Below, one piece after another: positions 30,857 to 40,076 of a stretch of DNA of 64,000 bases. Source of the stretch: Flavonifractor sp. An10. Lineage in GTDB: Bacteria; Bacillota; Clostridia; Oscillospirales; Oscillospiraceae. Each line of letters begins with the position of its first letter. Position 1 is the stretch's first letter. The translations under genes were made by a program, and so were the position numbers. A model generated the notes under the pieces. That model had not been told where the DNA came from, did no database searches, and worked only from the letters and a program-made list of their open reading frames with translations. The DNA is taken from NCBI RefSeq assembly GCF_002161215.1, contig NZ_NFMB01000006.1, positions 124,001 through 188,000 of the forward strand, read 5' to 3'.

Positions 30857-31127
30857 TTTATCTTCCTGCCGGCTGCGATGGTGGTATGTACCCCTTACGA
30901 CGCGGGTAAAAATCAGGCATAAGCGCAATACGGGCACCTGACGTATCAGAAATATCAGTACTTTACATATTATTTACACAAAATTGACATCCGCCATGTC
31001 GCTGACAGTCCTGATTTTTGCTAGATTATTAAAATGGATATGTCATACCCTGGGATTCTACAGGGGCGACCCCGAAAATCCGGCAGACGGTTCGTATTCT
31101 TCTGCTGGAGGGGATGGAGGGATCGGA

Positions 31128-31868
31128 ATGGTGCGGACAGAACACAGCATCGTGGGCCAGGTATATGAGGCGAAGACAGACCCGGAGGCGGCGGATCGCC
31201 TGATCGGCCAGTACATGGGCTTTATTCGCAGTGAGACGGTAAAATTCACTCACGCCGCCCCGGAGGACGGCCACGAGGACGAGCTGAGCATCGCCATGCT
31301 GGCCTTCTACGAGGCCATCCTGAGCTATGAAAAGGGGCGGGGGGCGTTTCTCCCCTATGCGGCCCGGGCCATCCGGAACCGGCTCATCGACCACTACCGG
31401 GCGGAAAAGCGGCACGGAAACGTGATCTCCCTCCACACGCCCCTGGGCACGGAGGAGGACGGCGGTGAGCTGCTGGACACCATCCCAGACACGGTGGATC
31501 ATGCGGACGCCTATGAGACGCGCACGGCCAGCCAGCGGGAGATTCAGGAGTTCGGCGCCCAGCTGGCGGCCTTCGGCATCTCCTTTTCCGATGTGGCGGA
31601 CAACTGCCCCCGGCAGGAGCGCACCCTGGCCGCCTGCCGCCGGGTGCTGGATCACGCCCGGGCCCATCCGGAGCTGCTGGATCGGCTGGTGGAGACGGGC
31701 CGCCTGCCCATGAACGAGCTGGCGGCGGGCTCCGGCACCGACAAAAAGACCATGGAGCGGCACAGGAAGTATCTGGTGGCCATTCTGCTGGCCTTCACCA
31801 ACGGCTATGAGATCATCCGGGGGCACCTGCGGCAGCTGGCCCCGGCGAAGGGAGGGAGCGGAAAATGA
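31128..31868 (+). CDS. sigI: RNA polymerase sigma factor, SigI family
   Basis: A 246-residue SigI-type sigma factor. Region 2 appears as RLIGQYMGFIRSETVKFTHAA then EDELSIAMLAFYEAILSYEKGRGAFLPYAARAIRNRLIDHYRAEKR, and SLHTPL follows. The C-terminal SigI domain contains FGISFSDVADNCPRQERTLAACRRV and KKTMERHRKYLVAILLAFTNGYEIIRGHL. ATG 31128 has GGAGGG six bases upstream. It overlaps the anti-sigma gene (ATGA at 31865). SigI factors of Firmicutes answer heat or extracellular polysaccharide signals through RsgI; here it heads a polyphosphate/CotH-type locus. Confidence 0.93.
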   Translation: MVRTEHSIVGQVYEAKTDPEAADRLIGQYMGFIRSETVKFTHAAPEDGHEDELSIAMLAFYEAILSYEKGRGAFLPYAARAIRNRLIDHYRAEKRHGNVISLHTPLGTEEDGGELLDTIPDTVDHADAYETRTASQREIQEFGAQLAAFGISFSDVADNCPRQERTLAACRRVLDHARAHPELLDRLVETGRLPMNELAAGSGTDKKTMERHRKYLVAILLAFTNGYEIIRGHLRQLAPAKGGSGK

Positions 31869-32767
31869 GCTATCTGGTCATGGAAACCCACCCGGCCTAC
31901 GCGGTGCTGCTGGACGAGGAGGGGCGCTTTCTGAAGGCGGCCAACCTGCGCTACCAGGTGGGAGACACCGTCCAGGACATTGTGGAACTGCAGCCGCCCA
32001 AGGCGAAGTCCCCCGCCCTGTGGAAGCCCCTGTCCGGCGTGGCCGGCCTGGCCGCCTGCCTCTGCCTGGTCTTCTTTGGCTACTACCAGCCCAACTACAC
32101 GGCCTACGGCACGCTGCGCATCCAGATCAACCCGGATGTGGAGATGACGGTCAGCCGTACCGACCGGGTGCTGGGACTGGATGGCCTGAATGAGGACGGC
32201 GAGGCGCTGATCGCCGGCTACGCCTACCAGGGCAAAGACCGGGAGACCGCCGCCGGCGAGCTGGTGGAGCGGGCCATTGATATGGGCTATCTCTCCGACG
32301 GAGAAACCGTGTCCATCACCGTCACCAGCGCCGACGCCGATTGGCAGGCCCGGGAGGAACAGGAGGCCCGGGAGGATCTGGAGGAGCGTTACGGGCAGAC
32401 CATTGTGATTCAGATCGGCCCCCTGGAAGAGGAGCCCCCTGCAACAGAGATCGTGATCCCGGTGACACCGCCCACGCCGGAACCCACGCCGGAGCCATCT
32501 CCGGAGCCGACTGCTCCGCCGGCGATTCCGGATAACACGGACTACGGCACCAGCGGCGATGGTGTGACTGACTACCAAGACACCGATTACGGCCCATACG
32601 CCGACGGCGTCACCGACTACACGGACACCGGCGGGGAAACGTACAGCGACGGCGTCACGGACTATGAGGCCCGGGATGACGACGACTGGGACGACAGCCG
32701 GGATGACGGCGACGACGATGACGATGATGACAGCGAGGATGATGACGACGGCGGGGATGACGACTGA
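31865..32767 (+). CDS. rsgI: RsgI-type anti-sigma factor with acidic repeat tail
   Basis: A 300-residue protein. The cytoplasmic N-terminal anti-sigma domain (1-50) has YLVMETHPAYAVLLDEEGRFLKA. One membrane segment lies near 58-75. The conserved extracytoplasmic RsgI domain follows (LRIQINPDVEMTVSRTDRVLGLDGLNEDGEALI). Then come a Pro/Glu-rich linker (TPEPTPEPSPEP), three 15-residue repeats of the DTDYGPYADGVTDY type (32534-32668), and a run of Asp. Known RsgI proteins end in carbohydrate-sensing or protease domains; this one ends in what looks like a thrombospondin-type-3-like calcium-binding array. It should hold SigI inactive until an outside signal. Confidence 0.9.
   Translation: MSYLVMETHPAYAVLLDEEGRFLKAANLRYQVGDTVQDIVELQPPKAKSPALWKPLSGVAGLAACLCLVFFGYYQPNYTAYGTLRIQINPDVEMTVSRTDRVLGLDGLNEDGEALIAGYAYQGKDRETAAGELVERAIDMGYLSDGETVSITVTSADADWQAREEQEAREDLEERYGQTIVIQIGPLEEEPPATEIVIPVTPPTPEPTPEPSPEPTAPPAIPDNTDYGTSGDGVTDYQDTDYGPYADGVTDYTDTGGETYSDGVTDYEARDDDDWDDSRDDGDDDDDDDSEDDDDGGDDD
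32534..32668 (+). repeat. Three 45-bp tandem repeats in rsgI
   Basis: Units 32534-32578, 32579-32623 and 32624-32668 encode variants of (N/D)TDYGxxxDGVTDY plus one residue. The third is the most diverged. They match the four units in the next gene. Confidence 0.85.
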
Positions 32768-32949
32768 GGCGCCGCAAATAAGCGGATAAAAATTTTGAAA
32801 GAAACCCCGGTTTGGGGGGCGGGCCCCCGTATTCTCCCCATGTAAGCCAAAGAGAAAAACTTTTTTGCAAGACCCCGTTTTTCAGGCAGCGGCTTCGTAA
32901 TCTATCAGCAGAGAACACAAAACAAACTGTATTTTCTGAGGTGAATGAG

Positions 32950-33978
32950 ATGAAAAAGAACTTCACTCCCAAGCTGTTTGGACTGGCCCTGACCACTGCC
33001 CTGACCCTGACCACCCTGACCGCCTGCGGAGGCGGCACCACCGCGCTCCAGCCGGGCACGGACGCCCAGGGCGCCGCCCTCACCCCCGCCCCGGAGAGCC
33101 CCGCCGCAAGCGTGGGCACCGTGCTGCTGAGCGTCAACCCGGAGATCGAGATGGACTACGACGAGGCGGGCAACGTGGTGGCCCTCAATGGCCTCAACGA
33201 CGACGGGAAGGCCGTCCTGGCCTCCTACACCGGCTATGAGGGCAGGGCCTGCACCGCCGTCGTCGGCGAGCTGGTGAATGAGATCAACGCCGGCGGCTAC
33301 TTCGATACCACCATCGACGGCCATGAGAAGAACATCGTCCTCAAGCTGGAGCGGGGCTCCCGGTATCCCAGCGACCAGTTCCTCAACGAGCTGGCCCAGG
33401 CGGTTCGCCTGGTGGTGGAGGCCGATCAGATCGGCTCCCAGACCGTGGCCCTGGACGATGACGACTACGATGATACATACGCCGACAAGGGTTACATCAA
33501 CGCCCAGGCGGCGCAGGGTATCCTCTCCACCCAGCTGGGCCGGGATGATATCCAGTTCGTGGAAAAGGACTACGATCTGGACGACGGGGAGTACGAGGTG
33601 GAGTTTGTCATGGACGGCGTGGAGTATGAGTACGAGGTCAACGCCGTCACCGGCAAGGTCACGGAGATGGACGCGGACTACCAGGACTACGACGACACCG
33701 ATTACGGCCCCGGCAGCGACGGAATCACGGACTATGCGGATACGGACTATGGCCCCAACGCGGACGGCGTCACCGACTACGACGACACGGACTACGGCCC
33801 CAATGCCGACGGCGTCACCGACTACGACGACACCGACTACGGCCCCAATGCCGATGGCGTCACCGACTACAGCGATGATGACTGGGACGATGACGGCGAT
33901 GATGATTGGGACGACGATGATGATTGGGACGACGATGATGATTGGGACGACGACGATGACGACGACTGGGACGACTGA
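32950..33978 (+). CDS. Lipoprotein with RsgI-like domain, PepSY domain and acidic repeats
   Basis: A 342-residue predicted lipoprotein: signal peptide with lipobox LTTLTACGGG (Cys near 26). Residues about 58-110 repeat the RsgI extracytoplasmic pattern (LLSVNPEIEMDYDEAGNVVALNGLNDDGKAVL). A PepSY-like domain lies around 180-245 (GYINAQAAQGILSTQLG, then YEVEFVMDGVEYEYEVNAVTG). Four 45-bp repeats encoding DTDYGPNADGVTDYD (33694-33873) follow, and a WDDDDD tail. It shares both the sensor fold and the repeat cassette with the anti-sigma factor, so it may compete for or present the same ligand. ATG 32950 has GAGGTG six bases upstream. Confidence 0.88.
   Translation: MKKNFTPKLFGLALTTALTLTTLTACGGGTTALQPGTDAQGAALTPAPESPAASVGTVLLSVNPEIEMDYDEAGNVVALNGLNDDGKAVLASYTGYEGRACTAVVGELVNEINAGGYFDTTIDGHEKNIVLKLERGSRYPSDQFLNELAQAVRLVVEADQIGSQTVALDDDDYDDTYADKGYINAQAAQGILSTQLGRDDIQFVEKDYDLDDGEYEVEFVMDGVEYEYEVNAVTGKVTEMDADYQDYDDTDYGPGSDGITDYADTDYGPNADGVTDYDDTDYGPNADGVTDYDDTDYGPNADGVTDYSDDDWDDDGDDDWDDDDDWDDDDDWDDDDDDDWDD
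33694..33873 (+). repeat. Four 45-bp tandem repeats encoding DTDYGPNADGVTDYD
   Basis: Units start at 33694, 33739, 33784 and 33829. Units 3 and 4 are nearly identical at DNA level, pointing to recent duplication. The spacing of Asp residues and the DGVTDYDD core resemble calcium-binding thrombospondin type 3 repeats. Confidence 0.9.
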
Positions 33979-34657
33979 GTCCATCCGGCTGCGGCACGAG
34001 CTGAAGCACCAGATCTCTCCCCAGGAGGATCTGGTGCTCGCCGGCCGGCTGCGGAAGCTCTTCCGCCGCGACGCACACGCGGGCGCGGACGGAACCTACC
34101 GGATCACCAGCCTGTATTTTGACACACCCTATGACGCCGCCCTGCGGGAGAAGCTGGACGGGGTGGATCGGCGGGAGAAATTCCGCCTGCGGTACTACGG
34201 GGATGATCCCGCCTGGCTGAAGCTGGAGAAGAAGTATAAAATCAACGGCCTGTGCGGCAAGCGCAGCGCCCGGCTGTCCCGGGCGGAGGCGGAGGCCCTG
34301 CTGTCGGGGGAGCACGGCTTTTTGCTGGAGAGCGGCGACCCCCTGCTGCTGGAGTTCTACAGCAAGCTGCGGGGGAACGGCCTGGCGCCCCGTACCGTGG
34401 TCTGCTACGACCGGGAGGCCTTCGCCTATGCGCCGGGCAATGTGCGCGTCACCCTGGACCGGAACATCCGCACCGGACGCAGCGCCCTGGAGTTCTTCCA
34501 ACCGGAGCGGTTCGCCCTCAGGCCCCTGGATGGATCCACGGTGCTGGAGGTCAAATACGACGCGTTTCTGCCCGAGCTGGTGCGCCTGGCGGTGCAGACC
34601 CCCAACCGGCGGGCCGGGGCCTGCTCCAAGTACGCCCTGTGCCGCCGGTTCGACTGA
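33956..34657 (+). CDS. VTC domain protein (polyphosphate polymerase-like)
   Basis: About 233 residues with the VTC/polyphosphate polymerase fold (CYTH-like tunnel): RLRHELKHQI at the start, ITSLYFDTPYDAALREKLDG, FRLRYYG, WLKLEKKYKINGLCGKRSARLS, VVCYDREAFAY, VRVTLDRNIRTG and VLEVKYDAFLPELV. The alternating basic and acidic residues are those that bind phosphate and metal in this family. The only early start in frame is ATG 33956, inside the Asp-rich end of the preceding gene and without a ribosome site, so translation is probably coupled. Bacterial VTC proteins are usually neighbours of DUF4956 and CotH genes, as here. Confidence 0.88.
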   Translation: MTTTGTTESIRLRHELKHQISPQEDLVLAGRLRKLFRRDAHAGADGTYRITSLYFDTPYDAALREKLDGVDRREKFRLRYYGDDPAWLKLEKKYKINGLCGKRSARLSRAEAEALLSGEHGFLLESGDPLLLEFYSKLRGNGLAPRTVVCYDREAFAYAPGNVRVTLDRNIRTGRSALEFFQPERFALRPLDGSTVLEVKYDAFLPELVRLAVQTPNRRAGACSKYALCRRFD

Positions 34658-34683
34658 AAAACATACGGGAAGGAGTGGCCTCC

Positions 34684-35358
34684 ATGACCACCTTTCAGGA
34701 TATCTTCCAATCCAGCTTTCTGGAGCGGCTGGACAGCGTCTCCCTGCTGGATACCGCCATCGCCCTGGCGCTGGCCTTTCTGCTGGGCCTGTTCATCTTC
34801 CTGGTGTATAAGCGGAGCTACAGCGGGGTCATGTACTCCCCCAGCTTCGGCGTGACCCTCATCGCCCTCACCCTGATCACCACCCTGCTGATCCTGGCGG
34901 TGACCAGCAACATCGTCCTCTCCCTGGGCATGGTGGGCGCCCTGTCCATCGTCCGCTTCCGCACCGCCGTCAAGGAGCCCATGGACATCGCCTTCCTGTT
35001 CTGGGCCATCGCCGCGGGCATTGTGCTGGCGGCGGGGCTGATCCCCCTGGCGGTGGTGGGCAGCCTCTTTGTGGGCGTGGTGCTGCTGGTGTTCTCCCGG
35101 CAGAAAAACGGCGAGTCCCCCTACATCCTGGTGGTTCACTGCGCGTCCCAGGACGAGGAGGCCCAGGTTCGGGCGCTGGTGGAGGCCCGGGTGCGGCGGC
35201 TCAACCTGAAGAGCAAGAGTGTCTCCCCCGGTCAGATTGAGCTGAATTATGAGGTGCGCCTCCGGGACGCGGACACCGGCTTTGTGGGTGAGCTGGGTGC
35301 CATGGCAGGGGTGAGCCATGTGGTGCTGGTCTCCTACAACGGGGACTACATGGGCTAG
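34684..35358 (+). CDS. DUF4956 membrane protein
   Basis: A 224-residue protein with three or four N-terminal membrane segments (about 22-42, 56-80, 98-135) and a soluble C-terminal domain (about 140-224). The family core GMVGALSIVRFRTAVKEPMDIAFLFWAIAAGI is clear. DUF4956 proteins accompany VTC-domain polymerases and are assumed to form the membrane part of that system. ATG 34684 has AAGGAG upstream. It is separated by 3 bp from the cotH gene. Confidence 0.92.
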   Translation: MTTFQDIFQSSFLERLDSVSLLDTAIALALAFLLGLFIFLVYKRSYSGVMYSPSFGVTLIALTLITTLLILAVTSNIVLSLGMVGALSIVRFRTAVKEPMDIAFLFWAIAAGIVLAAGLIPLAVVGSLFVGVVLLVFSRQKNGESPYILVVHCASQDEEAQVRALVEARVRRLNLKSKSVSPGQIELNYEVRLRDADTGFVGELGAMAGVSHVVLVSYNGDYMG

Positions 35359-35361
35359 GCC

Positions 35362-36798
35362 ATGATCCGCCACCGACACATCGAGGGCATCTGCGCGCTG
35401 GCCATGGTGCTGGCCCTGACGCTGACGGGGCTGCTCTTTTTCGGGGAGCGCCTGGGGCTTCAGGCCGCCAGCGCCGCGCCGGAGTACGCCGCCCGCCTCT
35501 TTGACGGCAGCCGCGTCCACACTGTGGATATTCAGGTGGAGAACTGGGCGCAGTTCCTGGCGGACGCGCCGGCGGAGGAATACGTCCCCTGCACCGCCGT
35601 CATTGATGGAGAGACATTTCACCAGGTGGGCCTGCGGGCCAAGGGGAACAACTCCCTGCGGCTGACAGAGGAATACGGCCTGAGCCGGTACAGCCTCAAG
35701 CTGGAGTTCGACCACTATGTGGACGGGGGGAGCTACCACGGCCTGGACAAGTTCTCCCTGGACGCCTCCTTTCAGGACAACAGCTATCTGAAAACCTGGC
35801 TGGCGTACGACATGATGGCTTTCATGGGGGTGCCCGCCCCGCTGTGCAGCTATGTGTGGGTGACGGTGAACGGCCGGCCCTGGGGGCTGTTCCTGGCCAT
35901 CGAGGAGCCGGAGGAGGCCTTTGCCCGGCGGAACTTCGGCGCGGATCACGGGCAGCTCTACAAGCCGGACTACACCTCCCTGAACGCGGAGAACGCCGAC
36001 CTGGCCCTGCGGTATGTGGATGATGACCCGGCCAGCTACCCCAATCTCTTTGATAACGCCAAATTTGACGTGGACGCCGGAGATCAGGCCCGGCTGATCC
36101 GGGCCCTGCGGGTGCTGTCCACCGGGGAGAACCTGGAGACGGCGGTGAACGTGGACGAGGTGCTGCGGTATTTTGTGGTGCAGGTGTTCGTCATGAACTG
36201 GGACAGCTACCTGGGCCACACGGGGCACAACTACTTCCTCTACGAGGAGGACGGGGTGCTCTCCATCCTGCCCTGGGACTACAATCTGGCCTTCGGCACC
36301 TACGCCCTGGGCATGACCAATCCCATCCGCGACCCCAACGTGCTCCTCAACTGGCCCATCAACACCCCCGCCCGGGGGGAGACCATGCTGGAGCGGCCCC
36401 TCTACCACAACCTGATGAAGAACGACGAATATTTTGCCCGGTACCACGCCTATTTTGACCAGCTGCTCACGGAATACTTCGAGAGCGGCCGGTACGAGGC
36501 GGAGATCCGGGAGACCCAGGCGCTGATCGCCCCCTATGTGGAGGCGGATCCCACAGCCTTCTGCTCCTATGAGGAGCATCTGCTGGCGGTGGACACCCTG
36601 CTGGAGGTGTGCTGCCTGCGATCCGAGAGCGTCCGGGGCCAGATGGAGGGGCTCTATCCCGCCACGCTGGCCCAGCAGGCGGAGCACCCCGGCGCAGGGG
36701 TGGACGCCTCCCACATCGCCCTGGGGAATCTGGGGGATTTTGGGGATCTGGAGGATGCCAGGGCGCGGCAGGACATTGCCCTGGCCGCTCTGGAATGA
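35362..36798 (+). CDS. CotH-family protein kinase, membrane-anchored
   Basis: A 478-residue protein with an N-terminal signal anchor (about 10-30) and a CotH kinase domain. Visible features: VGLRAKGNNSLR (near 90), SLKLEFDHYVDGG, LDKFSLDASFQDNSYLKTWLAYDMM, GLFLAIEEPEEAF, and the catalytic/metal region MNWDSYLGHTGHNYFLYEEDG with D281, then ILPWDYNLAFG with D306. CotH is an atypical kinase; in Bacillus it phosphorylates spore-coat proteins. Here it ends the sigI operon and a terminator follows. The phosphate acceptor is unknown; the acidic, Thr/Tyr/Ser-containing tail proteins of the operon are candidates. Confidence 0.9.
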   Translation: MIRHRHIEGICALAMVLALTLTGLLFFGERLGLQAASAAPEYAARLFDGSRVHTVDIQVENWAQFLADAPAEEYVPCTAVIDGETFHQVGLRAKGNNSLRLTEEYGLSRYSLKLEFDHYVDGGSYHGLDKFSLDASFQDNSYLKTWLAYDMMAFMGVPAPLCSYVWVTVNGRPWGLFLAIEEPEEAFARRNFGADHGQLYKPDYTSLNAENADLALRYVDDDPASYPNLFDNAKFDVDAGDQARLIRALRVLSTGENLETAVNVDEVLRYFVVQVFVMNWDSYLGHTGHNYFLYEEDGVLSILPWDYNLAFGTYALGMTNPIRDPNVLLNWPINTPARGETMLERPLYHNLMKNDEYFARYHAYFDQLLTEYFESGRYEAEIRETQALIAPYVEADPTAFCSYEEHLLAVDTLLEVCCLRSESVRGQMEGLYPATLAQQAEHPGAGVDASHIALGNLGDFGDLEDARARQDIALAALE

Positions 36799-37254: not shown

Positions 37255-38271
37255 ATGAGCAAGCGCAGGGCCAATGGGGAGGGCAACCTCCGCAAGCGGA
37301 AAGGCGGCCAAGGTTGGCCGATACACCGTGTTCCAGTGGATGGAGGAATGGTTTGAGCACTACGCCAAGATAAAAGTACGGCCATCCTCCCACCAGACCT
37401 ACCGTGGGTACATCGACAACCACATCAAGCCCAATATTGGAAGAATCCCGCTGGAAAAGCTCACTTCTCCGGAACTACAGAAGTTCTACAAGAAGCTGCT
37501 GGCCAACGGTCGCGTAGACCGATTGGAATCCAGGCACCAGGCCAAAGGGCTGAGCCCCAAGACAGTGCGGAACATCCACCAGATCATCTCCTCTGCGATG
37601 AGCTTAGCCAAAGAGCAGAAACTAATCGTCGCCAATCCGGCGGAGGGCTGCGCCCTGCCCAGGCTGGAGCACCGGGAGATGAAAACTCTGCCGGTGGAAC
37701 AGCTACAGTCCTTCCTGAGAGAGGCAAAAGAAAGCGGTGTGTATGAGCTCTACTACCTGGAGCTGGCCACCGGGCTCCGCCGGGGAGAACTTCTCGGTCT
37801 GAACTGGGAAGACATTGATTTGGAGCGGGGCGACCTCCGGGTTAAGCGGCAGATCGCCCGGATCAACGGCGAGGTGGTGGAGCCCCCCTGAAAACGAAAA
37901 ACGCCTACCGCACCCTGCCGCTGGCAGAGGATACGATAGACGTCCTGAAAGCACAGAGAAAGAAAGCAGGGGGCAGTCCCTGGGCATTCCCCAGCCCCAC
38001 CGGTAGGCCGATCTCCCCGGACAGCGTGCTGCATATGCTCCACCGGGTGCTGAAACGGGCGGGCCTGCCTAGGGTAAGGTTCCACGATTTAAGGCACACA
38101 TTTGCCACCCTGGCACTGCAGAACGGGGTGGACGTGAAAACGGTGTCTGGAATGCTGGGACACTTCTCAGCGGGGTTCACCCTGGACACCTACGCTCATG
38201 TGACCACGGCCTCCCAGCGGCAGGCGGCCAAGACGATGGGCAGTGTCCTCTCCGGCAGTTTCCAGTCCTGA
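37255..38271 (+). pseudogene. Tyrosine recombinase (integrase), disrupted
   Basis: A phage-type integrase pseudogene. It opens MSKRRANGEGNLRKRKGG, then loses part of the N-terminal arm domain and changes frame. The core continues as RYTVFQWMEEWFEHYAKIKV, LATGLRRGELLGLNWEDIDLERGDLRV (first catalytic Arg), stops at TGA 37889 because of a one-base loss in a run of six C, and resumes as LKTKNAYRTLPL through FHDLRHTFATLALQNGVD (His, Arg) and DTYAHVTTA (Tyr). Two lesions make it inactive unless frameshifting restores it. Confidence 0.85.
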
Positions 38272-39502: not shown

Positions 39503-39820
39503 TCATTTGAGCAGCCTGGGGTAATCCGTTGTACCGTTTACTACCCGGTAGATGTAAACTGTGTCCCCGTTCACCCGATAAACTGCGACATACGTGTTCG
39601 TCAATACCAGCTTCCGGTAATTTTCTGCCGCCAGCAGAGGATCTGGATGGATCTGACCGATCAGCGGGAAGTCCCGGAGCCGCAAAATTGTCTGTCGGAT
39701 GGTCTGGTAAATGCCCCGGGCGGACTGAACTCCCACCTGGGTGATGTGGAACTTGATGATCTCCCTGATATCCTGTTCCGCTGGGGCGAGATAGAGCAGC
39801 TTATACCTCTTCGTAGGCAT
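39503..39820 (-). CDS. Type II toxin, RelE/ParE family
   Basis: A 105-residue RelE/ParE-fold protein: LLYLAPAEQDIREIIKFHITQ at the start, then RLRDFPLIGQIHPDP and the C-terminal sheet KLVLTNTYVAVYRVNGDTVYIYRVVNG. This class either cleaves mRNA on the ribosome or inhibits gyrase; which one cannot be told here. Its start lies 20 bp inside the antitoxin gene, so translation is coupled. Confidence 0.88.
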   Translation of the reverse strand: MPTKRYKLLYLAPAEQDIREIIKFHITQVGVQSARGIYQTIRQTILRLRDFPLIGQIHPDPLLAAENYRKLVLTNTYVAVYRVNGDTVYIYRVVNGTTDYPRLLK

Positions 39821-40076
39821 GGAACAGTTCCTCCATCCCGGCGTCCAACTCCTCCTGCGTATACGCCGGGTCGCCTCTCAGACGGCTCATCTCCGCCTCG
39901 TAGATCTTGTCCCGATGGCGGTACATCTTCTCCCGCTCCTCAAAGGCGGCCATGCTCATAAACACCCCATCATCCTCCCCCTTATTGGTGATGAAGATGG
40001 GCTCCCCAGAGACCTTTGCTAATTCAGAGATTGCGGTATAGTCATTCCGAAGTGCGGACGATGGCCTGATTTTCAT
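39801..40076 (-). CDS. Type II antitoxin, Phd/YefM-like
   Basis: A 91-residue antitoxin. The N-terminal Phd/YefM DNA-binding part is MKIRPSSALRNDYTAISELAKVSGEPIFITNKGEDDGVFMSMAAFEE, and the C-terminal acidic region (YTQEELDAGMEELFHAYEEV) would wrap the toxin. ATG 40076 follows AAGGAG. First gene of the toxin-antitoxin operon, controlled by the promoter/operator at 40104-40140. Confidence 0.88.
   Translation of the reverse strand: MKIRPSSALRNDYTAISELAKVSGEPIFITNKGEDDGVFMSMAAFEEREKMYRHRDKIYEAEMSRLRGDPAYTQEELDAGMEELFHAYEEV

What the first reader, a model, noticed from the sequence alone, without database searches (positions are those of the whole stretch)
31128..36798. SigI-controlled polyphosphate/CotH surface locus with acidic calcium-type repeats
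Six tightly packed genes combine a SigI/RsgI signalling pair with a lipoprotein, a VTC polyphosphate-polymerase-like protein, DUF4956 and a CotH kinase. Known: VTC, DUF4956 and CotH genes tend to co-occur, and RsgI proteins sense extracellular ligands. New here is that the anti-sigma factor and the lipoprotein share both a sensor domain and a DYG..DGVTDY tail, joining sigma control to a phosphate-polymer or phosphorylation system. Inference: the locus may sense calcium or polyanions and respond by making or attaching polyphosphate or phosphorylating the acidic tails.
Basis: partly seen in the sequence, partly recalled or inferred. Interest (0 to 1): 0.85.

Follow-up and report, generated by a model that had tools for sequence, protein, structure and literature searches.

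The report
SigI operon with CotH-linked tail repeats
A conserved six-gene operon in gut Clostridia couples a membrane signalling switch to a secreted kinase-like protein, and the switch carries the same repetitive tail as the operon's surface lipoprotein, so the bacterium may sense whether its surface tails have been modified.

Summary
Six packed genes (31128-36798) encode SigI, RsgI, a lipoprotein, a VTC polyphosphate-polymerase domain, DUF4956 and CotH. RsgI and the lipoprotein share an RsgI_M (SEAL-type) domain and a repeat tail. It recurs: 55 of 80 named relatives hold all six genes, 53 in the same order. New: (1) a SigI-type promoter (CCCC-N19-CGTA) precedes both sigI and the lipoprotein gene, 101 of 115 regions with a relaxed pattern (75 of 111 with the first, stricter one). 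(2) The tail's constant unit is [S/T]-x-Tyr, not a calcium site. (3) The unit tracks CotH: 77 of 77 CotH-linked lipoproteins have six or more, 8 of 8 relatives without CotH in the locus at most one. Most likely CotH, a predicted Ser/Thr kinase, modifies both tails outside the cell, and RsgI's copy lets SigI read this. VTC/DUF4956 may supply exported polyphosphate, the weakest step. Sigma control is well supported by sequence; kinase-substrate is inference; calcium is not supported. VTC/DUF4956/CotH also occur without SigI in Clostridia, and sigI beside VTC and CotH was already printed for one C. perfringens locus.

The parts
31070..31100 (+). SigI-type promoter of sigI-rsgI: CCCCGAAAA ... CGTATTCT
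   Evidence: motif in 45 of 55 sigI-upstream regions (relaxed pattern)
31128..31868 (+). sigI, RNA polymerase sigma-I factor
   Evidence: Sigma70_r2; ten best NCBIfam hits are SigI models, all below cut-off
31865..32767 (+). rsgI, transmembrane anti-sigma factor with RsgI_M (SEAL-type) domain, proline-rich stretch and [ST]xY/Asp tail
   Evidence: RsgI_M 1.1e-21; P90 aligns to residue 1 of chains 8u9o_B and 8hep_B
32531..32665 (+). RsgI tail stretch with three DGVTDY units
   Evidence: 56 of 56 CotH-linked RsgI have two or more [ST][DNG]Y
32805..32835 (+). SigI-type promoter 1 of the lipoprotein-VTC-DUF4956-CotH unit
32873..32903 (+). SigI-type promoter 2 of the same unit
   Evidence: motif in 56 of 60 lipoprotein-upstream regions (relaxed pattern)
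32950..33978 (+). lipoprotein: lipobox, RsgI_M (SEAL-type) domain with VNP site, PepSY domain, repeat tail
   Evidence: VNP site aligned to the NP of RsgI 8t9n
33694..33975 (+). lipoprotein tail: four ~15-residue units (DTDYGPNxDGVTDY) then Asp/Trp-rich end
33956..34657 (+). VTC-domain (triphosphate-tunnel) protein, no signal peptide seen; overlaps the lipoprotein gene
   Evidence: Pfam VTC 1.4e-29; model pLDDT 90, best PDB match Vtc4 3g3r E 2.4e-12
34684..35358 (+). DUF4956 membrane protein with C-terminal ACT-like domain
   Evidence: model (pLDDT 78.5), weak Foldseek matches
35362..36798 (+). CotH kinase-like protein with N-terminal hydrophobic anchor
   Evidence: Pfam CotH 1.5e-60; aligns to 5jd9, D281 and D306 invariant in 7 sequences

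Best explanation
A dedicated SigI/RsgI surface-modification operon. SigI drives itself and the lipoprotein-VTC-DUF4956-CotH genes from one promoter type (strongly supported by sequence). RsgI and the lipoprotein carry the same autoproteolysis-type SEAL domain (supported) and the same low-complexity tail of [S/T]-x-Tyr units (shown). CotH, predicted to face outside behind its hydrophobic anchor, phosphorylates the S/T of these tails (inferred from tail-CotH co-occurrence and from CotH acting on repeat regions of neighbouring gene products in Bacillus). RsgI's tail is therefore a copy of the kinase's substrate. Its modification state, or its binding to wall or matrix, changes the pull on the SEAL domain and releases SigI, closing a feedback loop (inferred). 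VTC and DUF4956 make and may export polyphosphate, which could be CotH's phosphate source outside the cell (speculative).
For: All six genes in 55 of 80 loci, 53 in the same order. Promoter: strict pattern 47 of 56 rsgI-lipoprotein gaps and 28 of 55 sigI-upstream regions, shuffles 0-2; pattern relaxed after seeing the misses: 56 of 60 and 45 of 55, 125 hits in 1.12 Mb, 2-9 in shuffles, 6 hits elsewhere, all beside operon genes. Whole genome: 4 hits (reversed control 1), 3 in this locus, 1 upstream of a PepSY lipoprotein gene. Published SigI consensus ACCCCC--AA-N15-CGAA and CCCYYAAA-N13-14-CGWA (PMC4711584, passages). Tail: in 75 of the 77 CotH-linked lipoproteins (two with fewer than three [DN][ST]xY left out) 1160 of 1192 Tyr from the first repeat on have S/T at -2; Tyr at +2 of S/T 0.81 against 0.12 shuffled. 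[ST][DNG]Y: 77 of 77 CotH-linked with six or more, 8 of 8 not linked with at most one; both labels need six changes on the SigI+RsgI tree and 4 of 4 supported independent pairs agree. RsgI: 56 of 56 linked have two or more; of 30 unlinked 26 have none, 4 one. L202 has CotH but no VTC/DUF4956 in the locus and keeps the units. RsgI and lipoprotein tails of a locus resemble each other more than permuted pairs (37 loci, p about 0.002). [quoted passage not shown]
Against: No experiment. Only 4 supported (6 on the best tree) independent CotH changes, sign test p 0.125. An earlier cruder tail measure gave 2 agreeing pairs of 3, none opposed, and 4 against 6 changes; the final measure was chosen after that. 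Operon CotH is acidic (mean net charge -33 over the last 440 residues, 76 proteins), as is the tail, whereas CotB and CotG repeats are Ser/Lys/Arg-rich. Without SigI the trio has no such tail nearby: of 19 class-level loci, 15 hold VTC, DUF4956 and CotH, and none of the 19 has a repeat ORF. In S. intermedius the CotH and DUF4956-like gene deletions altered Pel and aggregation, but no such effect is reported for the polyphosphate-polymerase deletion (PMC12345266, passages), which speaks against polymerase feeding CotH. Extracellular ATP is scarce (recalled). Lipoprotein promoters have a T-tract where described SigI promoters have an A-tract. L202, L210, L213 and L216 show no promoter by the pattern. 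Tyr, not S/T, could be the functional residue.
Confidence: 0.5

Rival explanations
1. The tails are calcium-binding stalks (thrombospondin-3 or dockerin-like N-x-D-G-x-x-D), and RsgI senses calcium or the surface environment through them; CotH acts on something else.
For: The main 15-residue unit reads N-x-D-G-V-T-D (sequence).
Against: The place of the loop's first Asp is Gly (sequence; loop definition recalled). Variant units (DSGY, TNY, NSGY) keep S/T and Tyr but lose the D-G-x-x-D frame: after the 15-residue units are masked, 411 of 797 Tyr still have S/T at -2 (shuffle 0.12). Six of the 8 lipoproteins without linked CotH keep an Asp-rich end without the unit.
Confidence: 0.15
2. The operon is an exopolymer or wall-polymer module: VTC-DUF4956-CotH modifies or regulates a surface glycan as in Pel loci, and the shared tails bind that polymer so that RsgI senses it mechanically, as cellulosomal RsgI sense polysaccharides.
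For: CotH, a polyphosphate polymerase, DUF4956 and DUF4832 genes adjoin pelDEADAFG in streptococci and clostridia (PMC7112168, passages); deleting a CotH gene or a four-helix/ACT-domain gene that I take for DUF4956 changes Pel level and aggregation in S. intermedius (PMC12345266, passages); the window genome has a second trio beside a HEAT-repeat gene.
Against: Among flank gene families found in five or more of the loci none was a polymer synthase by eye; the largest, ABC-transporter-like, is in 18 loci, the next in 8. The tail is absent from the 19 loci without SigI read at class level.
Confidence: 0.2
3. Plain envelope-stress SigI system: the lipoprotein is a duplicated, truncated RsgI acting as decoy or wall-spanning linker, and VTC/DUF4956/CotH are phosphate-stress genes that share the operon without acting on the tails.
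For: SigI-RsgI-lipoprotein occurs without CotH or VTC in the locus (L072-L075, L196, L213), so that trio stands alone; a PepSY lipoprotein gene is a further promoter target.
Against: Does not explain why the tail unit is found only where CotH is in the locus.
Confidence: 0.15

Closest known systems
cotB/cotH/cotG spore-coat phosphorylation module (Bacillus subtilis; PMC7821199, abstract and passages)
   Same: CotH-family kinase encoded beside proteins with low-complexity tandem-repeat regions rich in hydroxyl residues; both catalytic-type Asp kept
   Different: There the substrates are spore-coat proteins with Ser/Lys/Arg repeats; here a lipoprotein and an anti-sigma factor with acidic T/S-x-Tyr repeats under SigI
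Cellulosome SigI/RsgI systems of Clostridium thermocellum (PMC12203970, PMC4711584, PMC6056542, passages)
   Same: sigI-rsgI pair, RsgI with self-cleaving periplasmic domain, variable C-terminal sensor, self-regulated SigI promoter with CGWA at -10
   Different: The sensor is a repeat tail shared with a lipoprotein of the regulon, not a carbohydrate-binding module; the targets are VTC, DUF4956 and CotH
CotH-polyphosphate polymerase-DUF4956 accessory genes of Gram-positive Pel loci (PMC7112168, PMC12345266, passages)
   Same: Same three gene families, adjacent
   Different: No pel genes seen beside this operon; PMC12345266 states that its authors failed to find the trio outside the Pel locus, which the window and its SigI-linked relatives do not fit
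NELoc-2 of Clostridium perfringens (PMC2879425, table passages)
   Same: sigI-annotated gene, a 348-residue cell-wall-predicted protein, VTC, a membrane protein in the DUF4956 position (named tubulin/FtsZ there; DUF4956 is my inference) and CotH in one locus
   Different: Has a resolvase and a second VTC pair, then a 685-residue protein, a HEAT-repeat protein and a glycosyltransferase; whether the 348-residue protein is an RsgI or has this tail was not tested

Membership tests
SigI sigma factor | similarity to SigI models; sigma region 2 without a recognisable region 4 | tested here: inconclusive
   Pfam finds region 2 only, as expected; ten best NCBIfam models are SigI, but the best (151.5 bits) is below its 306 cut-off, as are the others
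SigI sigma factor | autoregulated promoter with ACCCC/A-tract -35 and CGWA -10 | tested here: met
   consensus from PMC4711584. The tract is A or T here
RsgI anti-sigma factor | gene beside sigI, RsgI_M domain behind a transmembrane helix | tested here: met
   hydrophobic stretch by eye
RsgI anti-sigma factor | N-terminal SigI-binding domain | tested here: inconclusive
   no Pfam match to residues 1-80
SEAL autoproteolysis domain | N-P cleavage site | tested here: met
   RsgI P90 aligns to residue 1 of chains 8u9o_B and 8hep_B, whose start at Pro I take as the cleaved form; lipoprotein VNP aligns to 8t9n NP. Cleavage itself not tested; RsgI_M being the SEAL domain is inference
VTC polyphosphate polymerase | triphosphate-tunnel fold close to Vtc4 | tested here: met
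   Pfam 1.4e-29
VTC polyphosphate polymerase | tunnel Lys/Arg/Glu kept | tested here: met
   invariant K10, R70, R72, K86, K88, K95, R146, R157, E191, K193, K218 in 30 sequences; alignment to 3g3q. Match to named Vtc4 catalytic residues is recalled
VTC polyphosphate polymerase | makes polyphosphate | not testable with these tools
   needs enzyme assay
CotH kinase | similarity to solved CotH with both catalytic-type Asp | tested here: met
   5jd9 E 3.2e-14; D281 and D306 invariant in 7 sequences. D228Q as inactive form is in PMC7821199; D251 and the residue matching are recalled or read from the alignment
CotH kinase | phosphorylates S/T repeats | not testable with these tools
   needs phosphoproteomics
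Thrombospondin-3/dockerin calcium repeats | D-x-[DN]-x-D-G-x-x-D loop with first Asp (recalled) | tested here: not met
   all four window units have Gly there; no Pfam calcium-repeat match at E 0.001
Pel accessory module | next to pel genes | tested here: not met
   neighbours are a GH3 enzyme and a GHKL/LytTR pair upstream and recombinase pieces downstream

The most novel reading that the evidence does not exclude
A bacterial outside-in feedback loop in which an anti-sigma factor carries a decoy copy of a secreted kinase's own substrate. CotH phosphorylates [S/T]-x-Tyr tails on a lipoprotein and on RsgI outside the cell, using polyphosphate made and exported by VTC-DUF4956 instead of ATP, and RsgI reports the modification state to SigI through a force- or binding-sensitive SEAL domain.
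Probability: 0.13. Interest if true: 0.93.

Novelty: new variant of a known kind. Interest (0 to 1): 0.77.

Why it matters
If right, it gives CotH kinases outside spores a defined substrate and a regulator, and gives RsgI a new sensing principle: carrying a copy of the product's own modification site. It also offers a testable answer to where an extracellular kinase gets phosphate, and a reason why VTC, DUF4956 and CotH travel together. By record titles the carriers include Oscillospiraceae, Lachnospiraceae, Acutalibacteraceae, Anaerotignaceae and an Erysipelotrichaceae genome, several of them cultured isolates, so the ideas could be tested directly.

Tried and rejected
Calcium-repeat reading: examined through the constant residues and the relatives without linked CotH, lowered. 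Mobile-element reading: among flank families shared by five or more loci I saw no integrase, though one looks like a ParA ATPase (5 loci); recombinase pieces lie downstream in the window; not supported. Structure prediction of the lipoprotein was given up for VTC and DUF4956 because sequence already matched solved RsgI domains. Foldseek for DUF4956 gave only weak ferredoxin/ACT-type matches (E 1.4e-3 and worse). Ten literature searches listed no paper whose title or abstract is about a SigI-CotH-VTC operon with this tail; several listings were cut (one search shows 8 of 305), and this holds for that library only. The poultry-gut pattern in record titles could not be tested for enrichment. On checking, the odds of the novel case went from 0.15 to 0.13 because the polymerase deletion in PMC12345266 has no reported effect.

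Dropped or limited rows: the 80 named loci are the best of 353. Among the 85 lipoproteins several are near-copies (74 distinct cores) and some unnamed-genome loci repeat named ones. Contig-end lipoproteins (L068, L070, L206-L209, L214, L215) were left out of the CotH comparison; L212, open at its 5' end, was kept. L216 (lipoprotein without the unit, contig end just downstream; its RsgI has three [DN][ST]xY) and L219 (no RsgI_M lipoprotein) were left out; L195, L199, L217, L218 repeat named loci; L085 (fused ORF) and L240 (found later; 14 units, CotH-linked) are not in the counts. L075 has no N-P site and is missing from the count. The 20 class-level loci are 20 of 62 matching genomes. The 15-residue unit statistics use a pattern that itself fixes ten positions, so their low amino-acid change is partly built in and is not used. 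In alignment A2 the L064 row lacks its N-terminal part through my choice of coordinates. Alignment A6 had a stray 10-residue row and was replaced by A7.
Full report
Anatomy. The six ORFs and their domains are confirmed at the stated place. RsgI (31865-32767) and the lipoprotein (32950-33978) both match Pfam RsgI_M. In window RsgI, P90 aligns with residue 1 of the solved chains 8u9o_B (RsgI9) and 8hep_B, as expected if these are the cleaved form, and the lipoprotein's VNP aligns with the NP of RsgI 8t9n. In C. thermocellum the periplasmic domain of RsgI self-cleaves and starts the release of SigI (PMC12203970, passages; the primary papers were not held). The lipoprotein also has a PepSY domain. 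The likely VTC start lies 23 bases inside the lipoprotein gene; taking the start as 233 residues before the stop, VTC begins before the lipoprotein stop in 52 of 55 complete loci, which suggests coupled translation.

Recurrence. In the window's family, RsgI_M and VTC searches of 150 genomes followed by reading of loci where matches lay together gave the full operon in the window genome, G143, G145, G091 and G049, and split over contigs in G058 and a second time in G143. A scan with the VTC alignment gave 80 named loci, the best of 353. All six genes are in 55 of 80, 53 in the same order; the two others have CotH before the lipoprotein gene. Of the 25 incomplete ones, 21 start within about 0.6 kb of the locus start, one (L111) ends early, one (L155) starts 2.5 kb in, one (L085) has lipoprotein and VTC in one frame-shifted ORF, and one (L125) has almost 8 kb upstream without SigI or RsgI but keeps the promoter.

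Regulation. The gap between rsgI and the lipoprotein gene carries ACCCCGgTTTT...CCGTAttCTat with CCCC-N19-CGTA. With the first strict pattern 47 of 56 gaps and 28 of 55 sigI-upstream regions matched, spacing 19 in 49 of 50 gap hits, shuffles 0-2. After seeing the misses (mostly CGTATCCT upstream of sigI) I relaxed the pattern: 56 of 60 and 45 of 55, 125 hits in 1,118,598 bases against 2-9 in five shuffles; the 6 hits outside the two preset windows also lie just upstream of operon genes. The remaining misses printed there look like near variants by eye. With the pattern, L202, L210, L213 and L216 show none. Across the whole window genome CCCC-N19-CGTAWYCT occurs four times (reversed control one): three in this locus and one 122 bp before a PepSY lipoprotein gene. 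By eye that lipoprotein's relatives stand divergently beside sigI in 6 named loci. Described SigI promoters have ACCCCC or CCC-type -35 elements with an A-tract, and CGAA or CGWA at -10 (PMC4711584 and PMC6056542, passages). In the window the tract is A before sigI and T before the lipoprotein gene.

Tails. In 75 of 77 lipoproteins from CotH-bearing loci (two with fewer than three [DN][ST]xY left out), counted from the first repeat on, 1160 of 1192 tyrosines have S or T two residues earlier, and 1160 of 1437 S/T have Tyr at +2, against 0.12 (maximum 0.14) in shuffled tails. Over everything after the RsgI_M core in all 77, PepSY included, it is 1261 of 1653; after masking the 15-residue unit 411 of 797, against 0.12 shuffled; in 7 relatives without linked CotH it is 12 of 95, the shuffled level. 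The eight relatives without CotH in the locus (L072-L075, L196, L204, L205, L213) have at most one [ST][DNG]Y, every CotH-linked one six or more; six of the eight keep an Asp-rich end, L074 and L075 do not. Five of the eight genomes have no CotH match at all, three have one elsewhere. On a tree of SigI plus RsgI (74 rows, 6 without CotH) the CotH label and the tail label each need six changes; the four independent pairs on supported branches all agree (p 0.125). An earlier cruder measure gave two agreeing pairs of three, none opposed. RsgI tails behave alike: 56 of 56 CotH-linked have two or more units; of 30 RsgI proteins not near a CotH match have none and 4 have one. L202 has CotH in the locus but VTC only elsewhere in its genome, and has the units. 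G136 has a CotH elsewhere but none in its SigI locus, and lacks the units. RsgI and lipoprotein tails of one locus are more alike than permuted pairs (37 loci, p about 0.002); relatedness is only partly controlled.

Enzymes. CotH aligns to the solved Bacillus CotH 5jd9 with D281 and D306 invariant in 7 sequences; D228Q inactivates CotH in PMC7821199, and its match to D281 is my alignment reading. CotH has a hydrophobic N-terminal stretch in 10 of 10 loci printed (by eye), so its domain probably faces outside. VTC models well (pLDDT 90) and its best solved match is Vtc4, with tunnel-type basic and acidic residues invariant. DUF4956 models as membrane helices plus a C-terminal ACT-like domain, like the S. 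intermedius protein SIR_1592 described in PMC12345266 (passages).

Controls and counter-evidence. The trio VTC-DUF4956-CotH is not confined to this operon. A class-level search found VTC of this subfamily in 62 of 391 genomes; of 20 loci read, one (L240) has the full operon with the tail; the other 19 have VTC and DUF4956, 15 of them CotH too, and none has SigI, RsgI_M or a repeat ORF. By my reading, CotH lies within a few kilobases of a VTC match in 25 of the 39 CotH-bearing family genomes (one with a broken VTC match). The tail thus belongs to the SigI form, not to the trio. Operon CotH proteins are acidic (mean net charge -33, 76 proteins), which does not favour docking of an acidic tail without metal ions. 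In S. intermedius no effect is reported for the polyphosphate-polymerase deletion, unlike CotH and SIR_1592.

Interpretation. Bacillus CotH polyphosphorylates Ser-rich repeats of CotB and CotG, products of its gene cluster, and Thr repeats of ExsB are probably CotH targets (PMC7821199, abstract and passages). The same logic fits here: repeat tails beside CotH that are missing when CotH is not in the locus. The new element is that the anti-sigma factor carries a copy of the tail. The simplest loop is that CotH modifies both tails and RsgI reports the outcome. How modification changes SEAL release is open, as is the role of VTC-DUF4956; exported polyphosphate as phosphate donor is my speculation.

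Novelty. SigI near VTC and CotH was printed for C. perfringens NELoc-2 (PMC2879425, table passages); in the passages seen the regulatory link is not drawn. The trio is known from Pel loci (PMC7112168, passages). PMC12345266 says its analyses failed to find the trio outside the Pel locus; the present operon does not fit that. The shared tail, its link to CotH and the common SigI promoter were not met in the ten searches named in Tried and rejected. Hence a new variant of a known kind.

Noticed in passing
L164:2614-3408 (own genome, G000:C11): Fourth copy of the SigI-type promoter, 122 bp before a PepSY lipoprotein gene; next to a choice-of-anchor I/SLH protein gene. By eye, relatives of both lie beside sigI in several named loci.
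   Followed up: partly
L082:6470-13101 (own genome, G000:C9): Second VTC-DUF4956-CotH module without SigI, followed by a 751-residue protein without Pfam match and a HEAT-repeat protein, much like the order in C. perfringens NELoc-2.
   Followed up: partly
L085:3600-5423: Lipoprotein and VTC lie in one 607-residue ORF because the frame shifts inside the tail repeats: slippage (phase variation) or assembly error.
   Followed up: no
L071:293-1555: VTC and DUF4956 in one ORF, with the DUF4956 N-terminal part missing.
   Followed up: no
L084, L097, L098, L105, L109, L120, L139 and others: Several contigs begin at or near the lipoprotein tail, so the repeats seem to break assemblies and the operon may be under-annotated.
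   Followed up: no
L083-L162 record titles: Many carriers look like chicken-gut isolates or MAGs by name (naming habits recalled); no enrichment test was possible.
   Followed up: no
L110, L111, L114, L129 upstream of sigI: By eye the promoter contains an inverted repeat (CCCCGGTTTT ... [quoted passage not shown]
   Followed up: no
window 37274-38271: Tyrosine recombinase coding sequence in at least two ORFs just downstream of the operon (Pfam for the first piece; second piece by eye).
   Followed up: no
window 39503-40076 (-): Two small overlapping ORFs that look like a ParE-type toxin and its antitoxin, by eye only.
   Followed up: no
L204, L205: SEAL-type lipoproteins with PepSY-like repeats (by eye) and the SigI-type promoter, but no sigI in the stretch held: possible regulon members in trans.
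   Followed up: partly
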